Assembly (NCBI RefSeq): GCF_002215035.1
Contig: NZ_NKFP01000006.1
Span: 1,686,530 to 1,750,529, forward strand
Length of the DNA stretch: 64,000 nucleotides
Direction of reading: 5' to 3'
Source: Leptolyngbya ohadii IS1
Lineage (GTDB): Bacteria > Cyanobacteriota > Cyanobacteriia > Elainellales > Elainellaceae
This document shows, piece by piece, positions 5,189 through 36,162 of this stretch. The translations under genes were made by a program, and so were the position numbers. Numbering within the stretch: position 1 is the stretch's first letter; each line of letters begins with the position of its first letter. The notes under the pieces were generated by a model. That model ran no database searches. It was given only the letters and a program-made list of their open reading frames with translations, and was not told where the DNA came from.

Positions 5189-5320
5189 TTGTTTTGCCAG
5201 AATCATTGCCTAAACGCTTGAATTCAAACCGCATAATTCAAGCCGTATCAAGCACTGCGTTTCTGACCTTGCTAATCATAGCACGTAAAATCCGCCTTTT
5301 GTAAACCCGACCGCTTCGCG

Positions 5321-6742
5321 CCAGCAATTCTCATTTTGGCGAAAAGCTGTTCAAGTCATGGAAATGCCTGTATTGTGAGGACATCTGAGAGAGCCAAGAG
5401 AGCCAGAACCGTTGAAAGAACGGGGGTTGTTTGACATAATAGTCGGTTCTTTTCGCCAGCGACTGTCCTCGCTACCGGACAAACGGACTGGCAAGAATAC
5501 TCGCTATGGAATGGAAGATGCAGCTTTAAGCGCGTTTAGCGTGTTTTTCACCCAGACCCCTTCATTTCTGGCATATCAGCGGATGATGGAGGGCAGCAAA
5601 GGCAAAAGCAATGCTCAAAGCCTGTTTGGTGTCTATCAGATTCCCAGCGACAACCAAATCCGGGACTTGTTAGATTCGGTAGCACCTGAGCACGTGTTTC
5701 CGGTGTTTGAGGAAATCTTGCAGGGGTTAGAGCAGCAGGGGCAGTTAGCGGACTTCCGCTCTACTGCGGATACTCTGTTGATTGCCTTGGATGGCACCGA
5801 ATACTTCAGTTCAAGCCAAATTCACTGCGCTAACTGTTCAAAGCGCACGCTGAAGTCGGGAGAAACTCACTACTTCCATAGCGTTATCACGCCGGTCATC
5901 GTCTGTCCGGGACAGAGCCACGTGATCCCCTTGGTTCCTGAGTTCATCGTGCCGCAGGATGGACATGACAAGCAGGACTGTGAGAATGCCGCCGCGAAAC
6001 GCTGGTTGGCGCAGCAGGGGCAACGCTGGAGTGGCTTGAACGTCACTGTTCTAGGGGACGACCTTTATTGCCGCCAGCCCTTATGCCAGCAGCTTTTAGA
6101 CCAGCAGTTCAACTTTATCCTGGTGTGTCGTCCCGAATCCCACACCACCCTCTATGAGCATCTTGCAGGCATTGCTCTGCCAACCGTCACGACCAAGCGG
6201 TGGACCGGGAAAGTTGAGGAGACCTATACCTACCGCTATCTCAACTCAGTGCCTCTAAGAGATAGCGAGGATGCTTTGTTGGTTAACTGGTGTGAGGTCA
6301 CAGTCAGTCGTCCTGACGGCAAGGTGACGTATCAGAATTCGTTTGCCACCAATCACTCTCTGAGCAATGAAAACGTAGCCCAGATCGTTCTGGCAGGGCG
6401 TACCCGTTGGAAGGTCGAAAACGAGAATAACAACACGCTTAAGACTAAGGGCTACAATCTGGAACACAATTTCGGGCACGGGAAACAGCACCTCTCCTCA
6501 CTGCTTGCGACCCTGAATATCCTGTCCCTGCTATTCCACACGTTGTTGGAGTTGCTCGACCAGAAGTACAAGCTGCTGCGATCTCACTTGCCGACACGTA
6601 AGACCTTTTTTGATGACTTGCGGGCGTTAACCCGTTACATGTATTTCGACAGTTGGGATCATCTGCTCACCTTCATGCTCGAAGGGCTAGAGCTAGACAT
6701 TCCGCCCAATACCAGTTGAATCGCCATACTGAGAATTGCTGG
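5321..6742 (+). mobile_element. Complete insertion sequence with 22-bp inverted repeats and 7-bp target duplication
   Basis: The ends form a 22-bp inverted repeat with two mismatches: 5321-5342 begins CCAGCAATTCTCA and ends TGGCGA, and 6721-6742 is its reverse complement. The heptamer CTTCGCG is present directly outside both ends (5314-5320 and 6743-6749), as expected for a target-site duplication. The element is 1422 bp and carries one transposase. Intact ends and an open reading frame suggest a recent insertion. The family is probably IS4-like or ISNCY; it was not identified further. Confidence 0.9.
5412..6719 (+). CDS. DDE transposase (IS4-like / ISNCY type)
   Basis: 435 residues filling the insertion sequence. 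A DDE-type core is visible: a first Asp in LIALDGTEYF, a second in VTVLGDDLYC, and a Glu in RTRWKVENENNNTLK, which resembles the Y/W-x-x-E signature of IS4-like enzymes. A CxxC pair (HCANCSKRTL) follows the first Asp, perhaps a zinc knuckle. The frame opens at a TTG (5412); the first in-frame ATG is at 5508, inside what looks like conserved sequence, so TTG is preferred. No frameshift or stop is seen. The gene starts about 70 nt inside the left repeat, and its stop directly abuts the right repeat. Confidence 0.85.
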   Translation: MKERGLFDIIVGSFRQRLSSLPDKRTGKNTRYGMEDAALSAFSVFFTQTPSFLAYQRMMEGSKGKSNAQSLFGVYQIPSDNQIRDLLDSVAPEHVFPVFEEILQGLEQQGQLADFRSTADTLLIALDGTEYFSSSQIHCANCSKRTLKSGETHYFHSVITPVIVCPGQSHVIPLVPEFIVPQDGHDKQDCENAAAKRWLAQQGQRWSGLNVTVLGDDLYCRQPLCQQLLDQQFNFILVCRPESHTTLYEHLAGIALPTVTTKRWTGKVEETYTYRYLNSVPLRDSEDALLVNWCEVTVSRPDGKVTYQNSFATNHSLSNENVAQIVLAGRTRWKVENENNNTLKTKGYNLEHNFGHGKQHLSSLLATLNILSLLFHTLLELLDQKYKLLRSHLPTRKTFFDDLRALTRYMYFDSWDHLLTFMLEGLELDIPPNTS

Positions 6743-29086: not shown

Positions 29087-29168
29087 GATTAACGATCCCA
29101 ATCACCCGCCGCAGACAAACTTACGCTCCAACCGATAACCTCTCGACAGTCGGGTGCATTGGGCTTGT
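29087..29168 (-). repeat. attC-like recombination site 1 (interrupted by the group II intron)
   Basis: Read on the minus strand and joined with 31107-31111, this gives an 87-nt site starting GTATAACAAGCCCAATGCAC and ending GGTGATTGGGATCGTTAATC. The arms pair (CCCAAT with ATTGGG, then CAC/GTG and CCG/CGG). The 5' arm carries extra unpaired bases (a G after CCCAAT, an A in CGAC), as in integron attC sites, and unpaired spacers separate the TAAC/GTTA cores from the stem. It is very similar to site 2 at 34479. Confidence 0.7.
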
Positions 29169-29671
29169 GTACGCCCGGCATGGGCGTGAACTAATGGGGT
29201 GCAAGTCCCCTGGAGGAGAACCAGCGTCCAAATGCTCGAAAGTTCTTGGAGCCGAGTGACGACAACTCCTAGCTTAAGGCAAGGGCACTTCCGCGAGGAA
29301 GGGTCTGAAGGAAGCCAGCGGCAAACCTGCGAGCCGACGAACAGAAACGTCATAGAAGGCTGAGATAGTCCTGGGGCGAGTTGGCACAACACAACGAAGC
29401 CTTCTGGTTCAAGGAACACAGTAAATGACGCGGTTGTGCAGGGACAGTTCACGGTCTTATCCAGGGAGGTCTGTGCGGTAGCGGTCTGGCGGTCTAGGGG
29501 AGTCTGACTGAGGTCTCGCGGGAAACGGCGAGGGAGCCACAGAACCCTAAGGAGAACCAGACAGCGCGGTTGAGGGCAACTTCAAGCGTTCACCGTGCAG
29601 AAGTCAGCAGAGTCCATAGTAGTTCCCGCAGGGGAACGAAGGGACGAACATGAACGAACTAAGGAGGAGCG

Positions 29672-31006
29672 ATGAACAACTCAAACACATTTATGAACCC
29701 GGAGGGGGGAGATGGCGTTTGGCGTGCTGACAGAGAGCCAGCCTTAGACAACCTGATGGCGCGAGTCTTAGAGCGCGACAATGTGCAACGAGCCTGGCAA
29801 CGGGTGAAGTCCAACCAGGGTGCACCCGGCAGTGACGGGATGAGCCTAGAGGAATTCCCGTCTTATGCTCGCGAACATTGGTATGAGATTCGCCAATCCC
29901 TGATGGAGGGCAGCTATCAACCTCGTCCGGTGCGGCGGGTTGTAATCCCCAAGCCGAAAGGCAAGGGAGAGCGCAAGTTGGGTGTCCCTTGTGTCCTAGA
30001 CCGGGTAATCCAGCAAGCCATCCTCCAAGTGCTGACGCCTCTGTTTGACCCTGGATTCTCCGAGTCAAGCTATGGGTGTCGCCCAAATCGCTCGGCTCAC
30101 AGCGCTATCCGACAGGTGAAAACGATCCTGAAGGCGGGTTATCGCATCTGTGTCGATCTGGATCTGGAGAAATTCTTTGATACGGTCAACCACGATGTCT
30201 TGATGTCCCGCGTTGCCCGCAAAGTCGCTGATAAAGTGCTGTTGCAGCTAATTGGTCGTTACCTGCGAGCCGTGGTTTTGGTGGGAAGCACCGTTGAACC
30301 GACCGAATGGGGAACACCGCAAGGGTCTCCGCTTTCACCCCTGTTGTCCAACATCCTGCTGGATGACTTGGATAAGGAACTGGAAGCAAGAGGGCATCGC
30401 TTTGTTCGCTATGTAGACGACCTGGTGATCCTGGTCAAAAGTAGACGGGCAGGGCGACGGGTGATGGTGAAAATTAGCCGTTACCTCACTCAAGTGCTCA
30501 AGCTGAAAGTGAATCGGGAAAAGAGCCGAGTGGTCAAGATCGAGGATCTGAATTATCTGGGATTCACGTTTCGGGGAATTCGTATCTTCGCCTCTGATGC
30601 TGCCATGCAAGCGTTCAAGCACCGACTGCGCGGCTTCACCTCACGCAGTTGGGGTGTCTCGATGGCAGAACGATTTGAGCGATTGAACCGATACTTGCGC
30701 GGGTGGATGAATTACTTTGGCATTTCCCAGCATTACACCCCAATCGAAGAGCTAGACGGTTGGTTAAGGCGGCGGATTCGGATGTGCTATTGGAAGCAGT
30801 GGCGCAGACCGAGAACCCGCATTGCTAACCTGCTCAAGCTTGGAACCAGTAAGCGTCACGCGATTTTGACCGGCATTAGTCGCAAAGGCTATTGGCGATT
30901 ATCGAAAACGCTGGCGACGCAGACGGGAATGACGAATGAATGGTTGGAACAACAGGGTTTGTTATCGATTCGGCAGCTTTGGATGAAAGTTCAAGGATAT
31001 GCCTGA
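29672..31006 (+). CDS. ltrA: Group II intron reverse transcriptase/maturase
   Basis: 444 residues. Reverse transcriptase blocks 1-7 are present, including LDLEKFFDTVNHD, GTPQGSPLSPLLSNILLDDLD and the active-site motif RYVDDLVIL (YVDD in place of the more usual YADD). The maturase X domain SWGVSMAERFERLNRYLRGW and a C-terminal KQWRRPRTRIANLLKLG segment follow. No HNH endonuclease is attached, fitting class C. It splices its host RNA and drives insertion. AAGGAGGAGC lies 5 nt before the ATG. Confidence 0.95.
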   Translation: MNNSNTFMNPEGGDGVWRADREPALDNLMARVLERDNVQRAWQRVKSNQGAPGSDGMSLEEFPSYAREHWYEIRQSLMEGSYQPRPVRRVVIPKPKGKGERKLGVPCVLDRVIQQAILQVLTPLFDPGFSESSYGCRPNRSAHSAIRQVKTILKAGYRICVDLDLEKFFDTVNHDVLMSRVARKVADKVLLQLIGRYLRAVVLVGSTVEPTEWGTPQGSPLSPLLSNILLDDLDKELEARGHRFVRYVDDLVILVKSRRAGRRVMVKISRYLTQVLKLKVNREKSRVVKIEDLNYLGFTFRGIRIFASDAAMQAFKHRLRGFTSRSWGVSMAERFERLNRYLRGWMNYFGISQHYTPIEELDGWLRRRIRMCYWKQWRRPRTRIANLLKLGTSKRHAILTGISRKGYWRLSKTLATQTGMTNEWLEQQGLLSIRQLWMKVQGYA

Positions 31007-31035
31007 AGCCATTAGTGTTGTTTGCGCGTCTTCAT

Positions 31036-31069
31036 GAACCGCCCATTGCGGACCCGCACGATGGGTGGT
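31036..31069 (+). ncRNA. Group II intron domain V
   Basis: A 34-nt hairpin: GAACCGCCCAT pairs with ATGGGTGGT around TGCGGACCCGCACG. It carries the catalytic core of the ribozyme. The following nucleotides to 31106 form domain VI (GGGGAGAG/CTCTCCTC stem). Confidence 0.8.
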
Positions 31070-31117
31070 GTGGGAGGGGAGAGTTAAATGCTCTCCTCGA
31101 CCCGATTATACAGCGTT

Positions 31118-31342
31118 TCAGCAATGTTCTTCTGGCAAATCCAACTCATCACGCATTAGTTGATCAGTAGTTACGTCGAAAGTATCTGCTACCCTAAGAA
31201 TCATTTCAGCGTTAGGAACCTTTCTGCCCTTCTCTAATTGCGATACAAATGTATTGTGAACACTTAATAAATTACCTAGCTCTGTCAGTGTTAAGCCCCG
31301 CCGAATTCTTAGTTGATACAGCTTTTCTCCAAATCGCCTCAT
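31118..31342 (-). CDS. XRE-family regulator, probable controller protein of the R-M module
   Basis: 74 residues that are essentially one helix-turn-helix domain of the Cro/C1 type: FGEKLYQLRIRRGLTLTELGNLLSVHNTFVSQLEKGRKVPN. Size and position match controller (C) proteins of type II restriction-modification systems, which time nuclease expression. It is divergent from the methyltransferase gene with 89 nt between the starts; a 20-bp palindrome lies in that gap. Its 3' end nearly touches the attC-like site 1. Confidence 0.85.
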   Translation of the reverse strand: MRRFGEKLYQLRIRRGLTLTELGNLLSVHNTFVSQLEKGRKVPNAEMILRVADTFDVTTDQLMRDELDLPEEHC

Positions 31343-31380
31343 AAATTTAGTTGACTCAGCAGTAAGGATGACGCTATGCT

Positions 31381-31400
31381 TTCATAGCAATAGCTATGAA
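31381..31400. promoter_or_regulatory. 20-bp palindromic operator between regulator and methyltransferase
   Basis: TTCATAGCAATAGCTATGAA has perfect 8-bp arms around AATA. It is centred about 48 nt from the regulator start and 42 nt from the methyltransferase start. A further GCTATG half-site lies at 31373. This fits a binding site for the neighbouring XRE protein (inference). Confidence 0.65.
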
Positions 31401-31431
31401 TTTGCTTCTATAAATTGCTAACGTAAGCACT

Positions 31432-32616
31432 ATGCCCCTTTCGGTGATGAAAAACAAGGCTTTAGTCGGCGTAGGAGAGGCTACAAGTCTTTACGGTGAC
31501 TTAACCTGTGCAGAGTACTTTGCAGGGATTGGGCTAGTCCGATTAGGACTAGAACAGGTAGGTTGGAAGGTTGTCTTCGCGAATGACTGGGCACATAGCA
31601 AGTTTGAAATGTACTCAGCCCACTTTAAGGATGCGAGTAAACATTATAAGGTTCAAGATATTTTTTCCATTTGTCCTGCTGATATTCCTGCCACAATACT
31701 TGCAACAGCATCATTTCCTTGTATTGATTTATCTTTAGCAGGTAATTTAGAAGGTATTGATGGAAAGCATTCCAGCGCTTTTTGGGGATTTACTAAGATT
31801 CTTGACAAGCAAGTAAATAAGCCTAAGCTTGTGATGCTGGAAAATGTAGCTGGTTGGCTAACATCAAACAGCGGACAAGACTTCCGAATTACAATTCAAG
31901 AATTGAATCGACTAGGCTATGCTTGTGATGTTTTCACTATTGATGCGGCTCATTTTGTACCTCAAAGTAGACCAAGAGTATTTGTGGTCGGAATGCAGTC
32001 ATCTAACGTTAATCAGGATATATTCGTTTTCTCTAAGCGCTCTTCTTCACTTAAAACGCAAGCGCTTGAGAAGGCAGTTATAAACAATATCGATCTATGC
32101 TGGAACTTTTTGGATATTCCAGCACTACCAGACAAAATAAAAGCTGACTTGAGCTTTGTTATAGAAAACATTGCAGATGACGATAAGCGCTGGTGGTCTG
32201 ACAACGAAGTAAAGCGCCATTTGAATATGATGTCACCCATCAATCTCGCATACTTACAAAGACTACAGGAGTTATCAACATATTCATACTGCCCTATGTA
32301 TAGGCGGGTTCGCGGAGGTAAGCAAAGGGCAGAACTTAGAAAAGATGGTCTTGCTGGTTGTCTAAGAACTGCTAGAGGTGGTAGTAGTAGGCAAATGCTT
32401 GTTAGAGTTGGACAAAGAACTCTTAAAATGCGCTTAATGACACCTCGGGAGTATGCAAGATTGCAAGGTGTCCCAGATGATTATCCACTTCCACTACAAA
32501 TTAATCAAGCTCTGACAGGGTTTGGTGATGCTGTTTGTGTACCTGTGATTGTCTGGATTGCTGAAAATATCTTAAACCCTCTAGTACTTGGCGGCACAAG
32601 TAAGCCAACGAATTAG
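31432..32616 (+). CDS. DNA (cytosine-5) methyltransferase
   Basis: 394 residues. Motif I is [19 protein letters not shown] (SAM binding), motif [14 protein letters not shown] with the catalytic Cys (PCID in place of PCQ), motif VI LENVAGW, motif [14 protein letters not shown], and motifs IX-X at the end ([29 protein letters not shown]). The recognition sequence cannot be read from this. Codon use is more AT-rich than in the surrounding core genes, suggesting transfer. The last eleven codons (after NPL) come from the end of an inserted IS630 element; without it the frame would run 17 codons past the target into the nuclease gene's 3' end. Confidence 0.92.
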
Positions 32617-33875: not shown

Positions 33876-34397
33876 CTAAGTCACTTCGAGAAAGTAGCTT
33901 AGTTCTCCATCAGTGATTTCTAGCAGTCGAACGCCTTGATTCCTAACAAAACCGTAAGTCACTGAACGCCGAAATCTTTGCCTGTCTGCGGCTTCATAAT
34001 TCTGGATAAGTTCAGGCAGCCACCTATCAAATGTAGGGATCATTTTAGTACGCTCAACCAACCAAACTTCAACATTCATATAGGTTTCACTTCTAGCGAC
34101 GAAAATGTGATCTACATCCCTATCATCAGTTAGTTTATTTAGTCCGCGATTTCTGTGGTACTGGTACTCAAAGCTACCTCCAATCGTGGCAGATTTCACT
34201 TCGTAGTTAACCAAATCTGCCCCATCACCTCTTCTTGCTCTATCGTTCACTAAAATTGCCGCAAATACTTCCCAATCTTTTGAACCCACACTACCTTGCA
34301 AGGAAAAACCGTACTGCTCGTAAATTTCGGCTTTATTACGGCTGTAATCAAGGATGTATGTTCTGTAGAAAGAGTAAGCTTCTTGGACTTGAAGCAT
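33876..34397 (-). CDS. Probable type II restriction endonuclease of the R-M module
   Basis: 173 residues from the ATG at 34397. A PD-(D/E)XK-like site is seen at GADLVNYEVKSA (Asp61, Glu66, Lys68), followed by FEYQYHRNRGLNKL and VDHIFVARSE, a layout found in several restriction enzymes. No close family was recognised. It faces the cytosine methyltransferase tail to tail; without the IS630 copy the two would overlap. A frame opening upstream at a TTG reaches back into the attC-like site and is less likely to be the true start. The role as cognate nuclease is inferred from motif and position. Confidence 0.6.
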   Translation of the reverse strand: MLQVQEAYSFYRTYILDYSRNKAEIYEQYGFSLQGSVGSKDWEVFAAILVNDRARRGDGADLVNYEVKSATIGGSFEYQYHRNRGLNKLTDDRDVDHIFVARSETYMNVEVWLVERTKMIPTFDRWLPELIQNYEAADRQRFRRSVTYGFVRNQGVRLLEITDGELSYFLEVT

Positions 34398-34478
34398 TGG
34401 CACGCGAATCACCCTCACAAGTACTGCACGTCGAGGATGAGTATACGAAAGAATGTGTCCTTGCGCACAGTCCAGGCT

Positions 34479-34566
34479 GTATAACGTTCCCAATCACCCG
34501 CCGCAGACAATCTCGGATGCTCACAGATAACCTCTCGGCGGTCGGTGTGCATTGGGGTTGTTATGC
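34479..34566 (-). repeat. attC-like recombination site 2 (intact)
   Basis: On the minus strand: GCATAACAACCCCAATGCAC to GTGATTGGGAACGTTATAC. The arms align as AAC-[AAC/GTT]-CCCAAT-(G)-CAC-(A)-CCG-(A)-CCGC: the 5' arm has three extra bases that would stick out of the folded stem, and the cores are TAAC/GTTA. The TAA stop codon of the upstream 533-residue gene is part of the GCATAAC core, as is common for integron cassettes. The centre (GAGAGGTTATC...TTGTCTGCGG) is shared with site 1. Confidence 0.75.
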
Positions 34567-36162
34567 CTCGCCGCTGCTAGCACTTTTGTCTTTCTTGCTT
34601 CTTGTAGGAACTTTATCAGGAATATCAAGGCGTTGATATAGCTCTTCTTGTTTGGGATACAAGAAGGAATGAGCAAAAGTTCTATTAGTTTGAGATATTA
34701 AATCTTGGAGGACATCATTAAATGTCTTTTGCAATAAGTCATCTAAAACTTTAGATAAGCTAAAGCCAGCAGCAATGTGTGGTTGCAAGGCTTCAAGCTC
34801 ATGAATTGATAGTATTTGCCAATTTAGAGCAGTGATGCCTTCAGCAAGTAACAGGCTATCAATATGCTCTCGGAAAAAAGTGCTGTTAATCAAGTGTAGT
34901 GGTTCTAACGATACTAAAATTGGTTTAAACGTAATACAAGCATGAAATTTTTGAAGTTCCTGAACTTTAGCCTGACAAGCAGATATAAAACTAGCAAGCT
35001 GCTTCAAGCCTTTTTTAACCTGCGCTAAGCTATTGTTGACAGCATCTTCACTAGCTATCGCTTGTGCTGCCCTAGAGAAGCGAGTCGTTTTACACTCAAA
35101 AAGGATTGCTGTTGAACCATCAATTAGAATCCAGTCGGGAGACTTCCCTTTATTAATTGGATAAAATTTACGGATATCTAGCTCTGAGAGCAACTCTTCG
35201 GAGGTAATACAATTCTGCAACACAAGACCAACATACCTTTCAAACACATATCCAAAGTAGGTGGAAAATTCTTCACCATATTCATTAAACATTTGATAAA
35301 AAATTCCTGTAGAGATTCTTGAGCCTACTAGCTCAGGGACAGGAGCATGAATAAAATCTTGATCTGCTGTGGAAAATTGCTTGTCCTGACAAGGTTTAAT
35401 GACTGGATAAGATAAGAGTGGATTGAAATCGTACATTTTAAAACGGCGATCCTTATTTTTCCACTTTTCATATACTTTTATTAATGTGTTTTTATCTGCC
35501 ACAAGCTGATTAAGAATAGCTCTAATGGTTTGGTCATCTGGTATTGTAATTCCTTGATTACGAGTCTTCTTAAAATAGTTTTTGTTAACTGAAAAATTAC
35601 CATGTGATGCGGAAGAGATGACAAAACCAGTAGTTATAAAGTCAAGAACAGAAACTCCAGTAATAGCTTGAAATTTATTTTCAAAATCAAACTGTGGAAC
35701 ATCTGCTGAGCTTTTTAGCTGCTGAGGAATGTCATGAAACAATAAAGCTGGGCGTGAGAACTCGCTAAACATTCCTGGCTCAAAAGGAAACTGACTACTA
35801 ACGAGCCTCAGCATCATAAAAACCGGGTTTGATTCCATAAACTCATCATGCAAATCCTTGTCAAAAGTTATTGGATCAGCAAGATAAAACTTATTAGATA
35901 AATCAACTAATAATCGAATATCGTAATTATTGATTAGCTGAGATGCCTTGCTGGGAGGACAAAATCTAGCAGCAAACAAAGCAACTCCAGCAACCATGAA
36001 AGGTCTAAGTTCTGGTGAGCTTTTTCTCAATAAATATAGGGAATGTAAAACATCGCCTAACTTAAGCCTTCCAAAAGCCTTTGCTATCTGAGCTTCTACC
36101 TTGTTCAAGTCAGTTAGAGAGCAGATTTCCATATACAGCTTATCAAAAGCAACAAAGACCAA
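34561..36162 (-). CDS. PD-(D/E)XK nuclease-domain protein of unknown function in a cassette
   Basis: 533 residues, not recognised as a known family. A nuclease core is visible in the middle: KGKSPDWILIDGSTAILFEC with Asp343, Glu356 and Lys358 (D-x12-E-x-K), preceded by a helix region FGYVFERYVGLVLQN. The N-terminal ~300 residues are helical and without obvious motifs; the C-terminal part is charged and perhaps coiled. AT-rich codon use sets it apart from the core genome. The stop codon lies inside attC-like site 2. Defence against phage or plasmids is a guess from the motif and from the neighbouring restriction-modification genes. Confidence 0.75.
   Translation of the reverse strand: MVFVAFDKLYMEICSLTDLNKVEAQIAKAFGRLKLGDVLHSLYLLRKSSPELRPFMVAGVALFAARFCPPSKASQLINNYDIRLLVDLSNKFYLADPITFDKDLHDEFMESNPVFMMLRLVSSQFPFEPGMFSEFSRPALLFHDIPQQLKSSADVPQFDFENKFQAITGVSVLDFITTGFVISSASHGNFSVNKNYFKKTRNQGITIPDDQTIRAILNQLVADKNTLIKVYEKWKNKDRRFKMYDFNPLLSYPVIKPCQDKQFSTADQDFIHAPVPELVGSRISTGIFYQMFNEYGEEFSTYFGYVFERYVGLVLQNCITSEELLSELDIRKFYPINKGKSPDWILIDGSTAILFECKTTRFSRAAQAIASEDAVNNSLAQVKKGLKQLASFISACQAKVQELQKFHACITFKPILVSLEPLHLINSTFFREHIDSLLLAEGITALNWQILSIHELEALQPHIAAGFSLSKVLDDLLQKTFNDVLQDLISQTNRTFAHSFLYPKQEELYQRLDIPDKVPTRSKKDKSASSGEA

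What the first reader, a model, noticed from the sequence alone, without database searches (positions are those of the whole stretch)
29169..31106. Group IIC intron inserted exactly in an attC-like site
Seen: removing 29169-31106 rejoins TTGT and TATAC and restores an attC-like end that matches the intact site 2 (TTGTTATGC). The intron runs antisense to the cassette direction. Known: IIC-attC introns pick the folded attC bottom strand with this orientation. The intron therefore gives independent support that the palindrome works as, or folds like, an attC site. The YVDD active site is a small deviation from the usual YADD.
Basis: partly seen in the sequence, partly recalled or inferred. Interest (0 to 1): 0.75.

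Follow-up and report, generated by a model that had tools for sequence, protein, structure and literature searches.

The report
Cyanobacterial intron inside integron recombination site
A self-splicing mobile intron has copied itself into the folding DNA site (attC) of an integron gene cassette in a cyanobacterium, exactly as a known bacterial intron family does; it is a well-supported new member of that family rather than a new kind of element.

Summary
The intron is 29169-31106. Removing it restores an 87-nt attC (29087-29168 plus 31107-31111). A covariance model built without the window's sites finds this attC at 54 bits. Relatives from class 1 integrons on named plasmids have the same termini and junction at an attC beside aadA cassettes (GAATTGT|GTACG...CCGAT|TAGAC).

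The protein falls in the attC lineage of class C introns (support 91/93), not with the terminator-targeting ones, inside a fully supported cyanobacterial clade. EBS1 ACAA pairs with IBS1 TTGT, and this pairing covaries across relatives. D5/D6 covary strongly.

The genome holds a full integron integrase with attC-bounded cassettes, about a dozen further attC sites, and a second intron copy (~98% identical) in another attC.

Additions: the intron starts GUACG, not GUGYG, with a matching change at nt 292 (63 of 63 introns); YVDD/YMDD/YIDD marks the whole cyanobacterial clade; the two copies share a 1,164-nt identical tract between divergent ends, a sign of gene conversion.

Verdict: a new cyanobacterial member of group IIC-attC introns. 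Splicing and mobility were not tested.

The parts
29169..31106 (+). Complete group IIC-attC intron, 1938 nt (5' GUACG ... CCGAU 3')
   Evidence: Shared termini with class 1 integron references and a second genomic copy; EBS1-IBS1 register
29087..29168 (+). attC site 1, bottom strand, part 5' of the intron: R' box GATTAAC (29087-29093), L arm 29097-29108, partner arm 29151-29163 with extrahelical C 29157, IBS1 TTGT 29165-29168
   Evidence: Fold, covariation, held-out model 54.0 bits
31107..31111 (+). attC site 1, remainder of R'' (TATAC); T31107 is IBS3
   Evidence: Sequence; same TTGT|T junction in references
29287..29455 (+). Ribozyme region, Rfam group-II-D1D4-3
   Evidence: 132.8 bits, gathering score 32
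29386..29389 (+). EBS1 (ACAA), pairs with IBS1 TTGT
   Evidence: Covariation across 54 introns
29171..29171 (+). Intron nt 3 = A (usual G of GUGYG); covaries with nt 292 (T29460)
   Evidence: A-T 42, G-C 21, no exception among 63
29460..29460 (+). Intron nt 292, covarying partner of nt 3
29565..29644 (+). Ribozyme region, Rfam group-II-D1D4-1
   Evidence: 59.4 bits, gathering score 35
29672..31006 (+). Intron-encoded reverse transcriptase/maturase, 444 aa, RVT_1 + GIIM, no endonuclease domain found; YVDD at 30410-30421
   Evidence: TIGR04416 404 bits, Pfam, tree
31038..31069 (+). Domain V
   Evidence: Fold; 100% of cells paired, 6 pairs changed on both sides
31072..31103 (+). Domain VI with candidate branch A31100
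   Evidence: Fold, covariation; A-CCC-GAU fits the AXX(X)XRAY end quoted in PMC7923331
34479..34566 (+). attC site 2, intact, bottom strand on +
   Evidence: Held-out model 52.2 bits; direct repeats with site 1
31118..31342 (-). Small HTH (XRE-type) gene, the cassette gene whose stop lies just before attC site 1
   Evidence: Pfam HTH_31/HTH_3
31432..32616 (+). C5 cytosine DNA methyltransferase in the same cassette
   Evidence: Pfam PF00145, 175 bits
32581..33875 (-). IS630-type insertion sequence inside the cassette (26-nt inverted repeats, split transposase)
33876..34493 (-). 205-aa ORF without family match in the cassette (possible partner of the methyltransferase)
34561..36162 (-). Gene distantly like antiphage GapS1, ending at attC site 2
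   Evidence: NF047931, 83.7 bits, below the cut-off of 320

Best explanation
This is a complete, probably mobile group IIC-attC intron. Inferred mechanism: the spliced intron RNA with its reverse transcriptase finds the folded, single-stranded bottom strand of an attC (hairpin plus TTGT/T). It pairs EBS1 (ACAA) with IBS1 (TTGT), reverse-splices between TTGT and T in the R'' half-site, and is copied into DNA. Because the protein has no endonuclease domain, the primer probably comes from replication. The result is an intron antisense to the cassettes, which splits the R box and so probably disables this attC for the integrase. Shown here: exact boundaries, the attC nature of the target, lineage, EBS1-IBS1 covariation, ribozyme covariation, and a second insertion in another attC. 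Inferred: splicing, reverse splicing, replication priming and the effect on recombination.
For: Junctions identical to class 1 integron IIC-attC introns. Reverse transcriptase in the attC-lineage clade and in a cyanobacterial clade at 100/99. The target is an attC by held-out model, with 25 compensatory cells against 10.7 shuffled. EBS1-IBS1 covariation. D5/D6 46 compensatory cells against 13.1. Second copy in a different attC. All ten cyanobacterial loci with a resolved 5' junction (eight distinct sites, window and second copy included) have an attC directly upstream of the intron. Full integron integrase and attC-bounded cassettes in the same genome.
Against: No expression, splicing or mobility data. 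The 5' end is GUACG, not the textbook GUGYG, though the class 1 integron references share it. The branch between attC-lineage and terminator-lineage is only moderately supported (91/93, very long outgroup branch). No empty version of this very site was found in 60 relatives.
Confidence: 0.95

Rival explanations
1. A class C intron of the ordinary terminator-targeting kind that landed by chance beside a hairpin that merely resembles attC.
For: Both kinds insert 3' of a DNA hairpin; attC-type introns are reported to keep some terminator targeting (PMC7923331).
Against: The protein groups with the attC lineage. The site matches an attC model trained without it. None of the 14 terminator-type introns scores as attC, while 69% of 51 attC-lineage introns exceed the 95th percentile of random positions. 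The second copy also sits in an attC.
Confidence: 0.02
2. The palindrome is a cyanobacterial repeat family unrelated to integrons, and the intron targets its fold only.
For: About a dozen sites are scattered over several contigs, most without an integrase nearby.
Against: Sites of the same type bound gene cassettes beside a full integron integrase. They have R boxes with AAC/GTT, an extrahelical base and compensatory stems. The model trained on them also finds attC sites of class 1 integrons.
Confidence: 0.03
3. The intron is a dead remnant that no longer splices or moves.
For: Non-canonical GUACG start; YVDD instead of YADD; no expression data.
Against: Intact 444-aa frame. A 1.9-kb copy lies in a second site. 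12 synonymous and 1 amino-acid-changing difference in the ORF between copies, although most of the ORF lies in a converted tract. D5/D6 stems are kept by compensatory changes. The nt 3/nt 292 pair is kept.
Confidence: 0.15

Closest known systems
Group IIC-attC introns of class 1 integrons (S.ma.I2-type; here L127, L129 and L130 from Klebsiella, Serratia and Pseudomonas plasmids)
   Same: Same termini, same TTGT/T target in the attC bottom strand, antisense to cassettes, En-minus class C protein, same EBS1
   Different: Only 52-53% protein identity; host is a cyanobacterium; target attC sites are about 87 nt; YVDD instead of YADD
Terminator-targeting class C introns (Brevibacillus, Anoxybacillus, Moorella loci L104-L125)
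   Same: Class C ribozyme and protein, hairpin upstream of the insertion
   Different: GUGCG or GUGUG start, mostly T-rich IBS1 after a terminator hairpin, separate branch of the tree
UHB.F1, truncated IIC-attC intron in a Tanatar-5 soda-lake cassette array (PMC7923331)
   Same: Environmental IIC-attC intron antisense to cassettes
   Different: Truncated at the 5' end and frameshifted; the present one is complete with a defined 5' end and a second genomic copy

Membership tests
Group IIC-attC intron | Class C reverse transcriptase/maturase without endonuclease domain | tested here: met
   TIGR04416 404 bits; RVT_1 and GIIM, no further domain; tree
Group IIC-attC intron | Protein falls in the attC lineage | tested here: met
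   One side of a branch with 42 attC-lineage rows, 91/93, terminator introns outside
Group IIC-attC intron | Group II ribozyme with D5 and D6 | tested here: met
   Rfam RF02001 and RF01998; D5/D6 covariation
Group IIC-attC intron | Termini as in the class 1 integron members | tested here: met
   GTACG ... CCGAT in window and in L127, L129, L130; differs from the general GUGYG consensus at nt 3
Group IIC-attC intron | Target TTGT/T with complementary EBS1 | tested here: met
   IBS3 is T, EBS3 not located
Group IIC-attC intron | Inserted in R'' of a folded attC bottom strand, antisense to cassettes | tested here: met
   XRE-type cassette gene on the - strand ends just before the site
Group IIC-attC intron | Splices and moves | not testable with these tools
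   No RNA or mobility data
attC site | R boxes (RYYYAAC/GTTRRRY), L stem, extrahelical base, compensatory stems | tested here: met
   (boxes match 6 of 7 consensus positions on each side)
attC site | Recombined by an integron integrase | not testable with these tools
   A full integron integrase gene exists on contig C4
CALIN (attC cluster without integrase) | At least two attC sites close together and no intI nearby | tested here: inconclusive
   Two sites, 3.4 kb apart without the intron and 5.3 kb with it; no full intI on this contig, the only one being on C4

The most novel reading that the evidence does not exclude
The two intron copies, 1.7 Mb apart on one contig, exchange sequence by homologous recombination (1,164-nt identical tract). 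In this cyanobacterium the introns could therefore act as portable homology that joins genes to attC sites, the step required by the Leon and Roy model of cassette formation. The non-canonical GUACG start, with its compensating partner, would be an adaptation of the attC lineage.
Probability: 0.15. Interest if true: 0.6.

Novelty: new member of a known kind. Interest (0 to 1): 0.38.

Why it matters
It extends the intron-integron partnership, known mainly from resistance integrons of proteobacteria, to a supported cyanobacterial clade with its own full integron integrase and attC cassettes. It gives an intact natural test system for attC-targeted retrohoming. The perfectly covarying nt 3/nt 292 pair fixes the 5' end of attC-lineage introns, which a published survey could not locate in its truncated example (PMC7923331).

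Tried and rejected
Start at 29167 (GTGTAC, nearer to GUGYG): rejected, because the references, the EBS1-IBS1 register and the nt 3 covariation place the start at 29169. An empty copy of this exact site: searched in 60 relatives with 31107-32500, only a 71% partial match to the HTH/methyltransferase junction in one genome and no attC there. The nt 3-4 pair as a two-base interaction with a dinucleotide: no two-column candidate held in both groups; the single column at nt 292 did. The 12:1 synonymous ratio as evidence of selection over the whole ORF: weakened, because all differences lie outside a 1,164-nt identical tract. My simple attC finder alone was too noisy over 64 kb (9 hits on the two strands; 2-6 hits per shuffled strand), so covariance models were used. 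Two Leon/Roy papers and the Leon 2010 paper are not in the library; Quiroga's papers are known here only through reference lists.

Full report
WHAT IS THERE. The window lies at G000:C6:1686530-1750529, in a 7.9-Mb genome; its nearest named relatives are Leptolyngbya-type cyanobacteria. At 29169-31106 on + lies a complete group II intron: two Rfam group II matches (132.8 and 59.4 bits) and a 444-aa reverse transcriptase/maturase (TIGR04416; RVT_1 and GIIM, no endonuclease domain found). The 3' end folds into D5 and D6. Across 12 relatives 97.7% of cells pair, with 46 compensatory cells against 13.1 in shuffles. The candidate branch A is 31100.

BOUNDARIES. The intron begins GTACGCCC, not GTGYG. 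A start two bases upstream (GTGTAC) would look more canonical, so this was tested. Class 1 integron introns on named plasmids (L127 Klebsiella, L129 Serratia, L130 Pseudomonas) have the same start. Two of them, L127 and L130, lie beside aadA genes at GAATTGT|GTACG ... CCGAT|TAGAC, which rejoins to the aadA-type attC end (recalled, not tested). EBS1 lies at 29386-29389 (ACAA) and pairs with TTGT 29165-29168. When IBS1 changes in other introns EBS1 changes with it (for example TTCG/CGAA, TTTA/TAAA, TTTC/GAAA, TGTT/AACA). For the 27 introns with other IBS1, 82 of 108 positions pair against 49 +/- 4 in permutations, 0 of 10,000 as high. Intron nt 3 is A in 42 and G in 21 introns, and a position in a conserved TTA[T/C]C motif (window nt 292, 29460) is T or C accordingly, without exception in 63. 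Each trait changes four times on the best tree; on starred branches alone only two independent pairs remain, too few for significance. I do not name this contact.

THE TARGET. Rejoining the flanks gives an 87-nt site whose bottom strand folds into an attC hairpin: R box, one mismatch as spacer, L box of 12 pairs with one extrahelical C. Of 20,000 random positions 0.02% score as high. Eleven attC sites from this genome and cyanobacterial relatives show 25 compensatory cells against 10.7 in shuffles, and pairing falls from 86% to 30-44% if the partner is slid. A covariance model built without the window's two sites finds 29087-29174 at 54.0 bits and site 2 at 52.2 bits; it also finds attC sites in class 1 integrons, and nothing in terminator-intron loci. 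With the intron present the model match runs into its first six bases.

GENOME CONTEXT. Contig C4 carries a full integron integrase (462.7 bits, cut-off 265) followed by cassettes and attC sites (L132:4457-4543, 5281-5367 and a weaker 6069-6155). A model search finds sixteen attC candidates in the genome, about a dozen of them strong. In the window the cassette between site 2 and site 1 holds a small HTH gene ending just before site 1, a C5 methyltransferase on the other strand, an IS630-type insertion and a 205-aa ORF without match. The next cassette gene upstream is distantly GapS1-like (83.7 bits, below cut-off). A second intron copy (97.6% over the aligned stretch) sits in another attC at C6:3424048, 1.8 kb from an integrase remnant. 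Integron integrases are frequent in this group: 26 of 60 relatives exceed the cut-off.

LINEAGE. The protein tree puts the window in a cyanobacterial clade (100/99) inside a 42-row attC lineage (91/93) that includes the class 1 integron references; the 11 terminator-targeting class C rows lie outside. None of 14 terminator-type introns has an attC-like 5' exon, while 69% of 51 attC-lineage introns exceed the 95th percentile of random positions. The active-site motif is YVDD, YMDD or YIDD in every cyanobacterial member with the region intact, and YADD elsewhere apart from one YCDD, among class C members.

TWO COPIES. The copies differ at 43 positions, all outside a 1,164-nt identical tract (29497-30661); none of 20,000 uniform placements gives such a run. 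This points to gene conversion or recombination between copies. In D5 and D6 several differences are compensatory (31044-31045 with 31061-31063; 31079 with 31095; 31082 with 31092), so both copies keep the fold.

MECHANISM. Shown: boundaries, target, lineage, EBS1-IBS1 pairing by covariation, conserved ribozyme, spread to two attC sites. Inferred from the family (PMC7923331, PMC4424553): splicing, reverse splicing into the folded bottom strand during replication, target-primed copying without endonuclease. Also inferred: the insertion splits R'' and changes GTT to GTG, leaving the R' side GATTAAC intact, so the site is probably disabled for the integrase.

COMPARISON. It works like and belongs to the group IIC-attC introns. 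I found no paper in the held library that reports them in cyanobacteria, but the two class C-attC surveys by Quiroga and the Leon/Roy papers are not held, so priority cannot be claimed.

Noticed in passing
window 29497-30661 and L005: The two intron copies are identical for 1,164 nt but differ at 43 positions outside it, a sign of gene conversion between copies 1.7 Mb apart.
   Followed up: yes
L093 (Gemmatales KatS3mg105): Three class C introns joined head to tail, CCCGAT directly followed by GTACGCC, with no exon between; L113 shows intron-T-intron. Assembly error not excluded.
   Followed up: no
window 34561-36162: Cassette gene distantly similar to the antiphage protein GapS1, ending at attC site 2; with the HTH/methyltransferase cassette this suggests defence cassettes.
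   Followed up: partly
L132:1531-4185: The integrase-linked cassette on contig C4 has the same layout (HTH, C5 methyltransferase on the other strand, unknown ORF) as the window cassette.
   Followed up: partly
L005 about 6247-6475 (C6:3427747-3427974): N-terminal remnant of an integron integrase 1.8 kb from the second intron copy: a decayed integron.
   Followed up: no
cyanobacterial loci L018-L022, L047-L051, L055: YVDD, YMDD or YIDD at the reverse transcriptase active site in all cyanobacterial members, YADD in nearly all others.
   Followed up: partly
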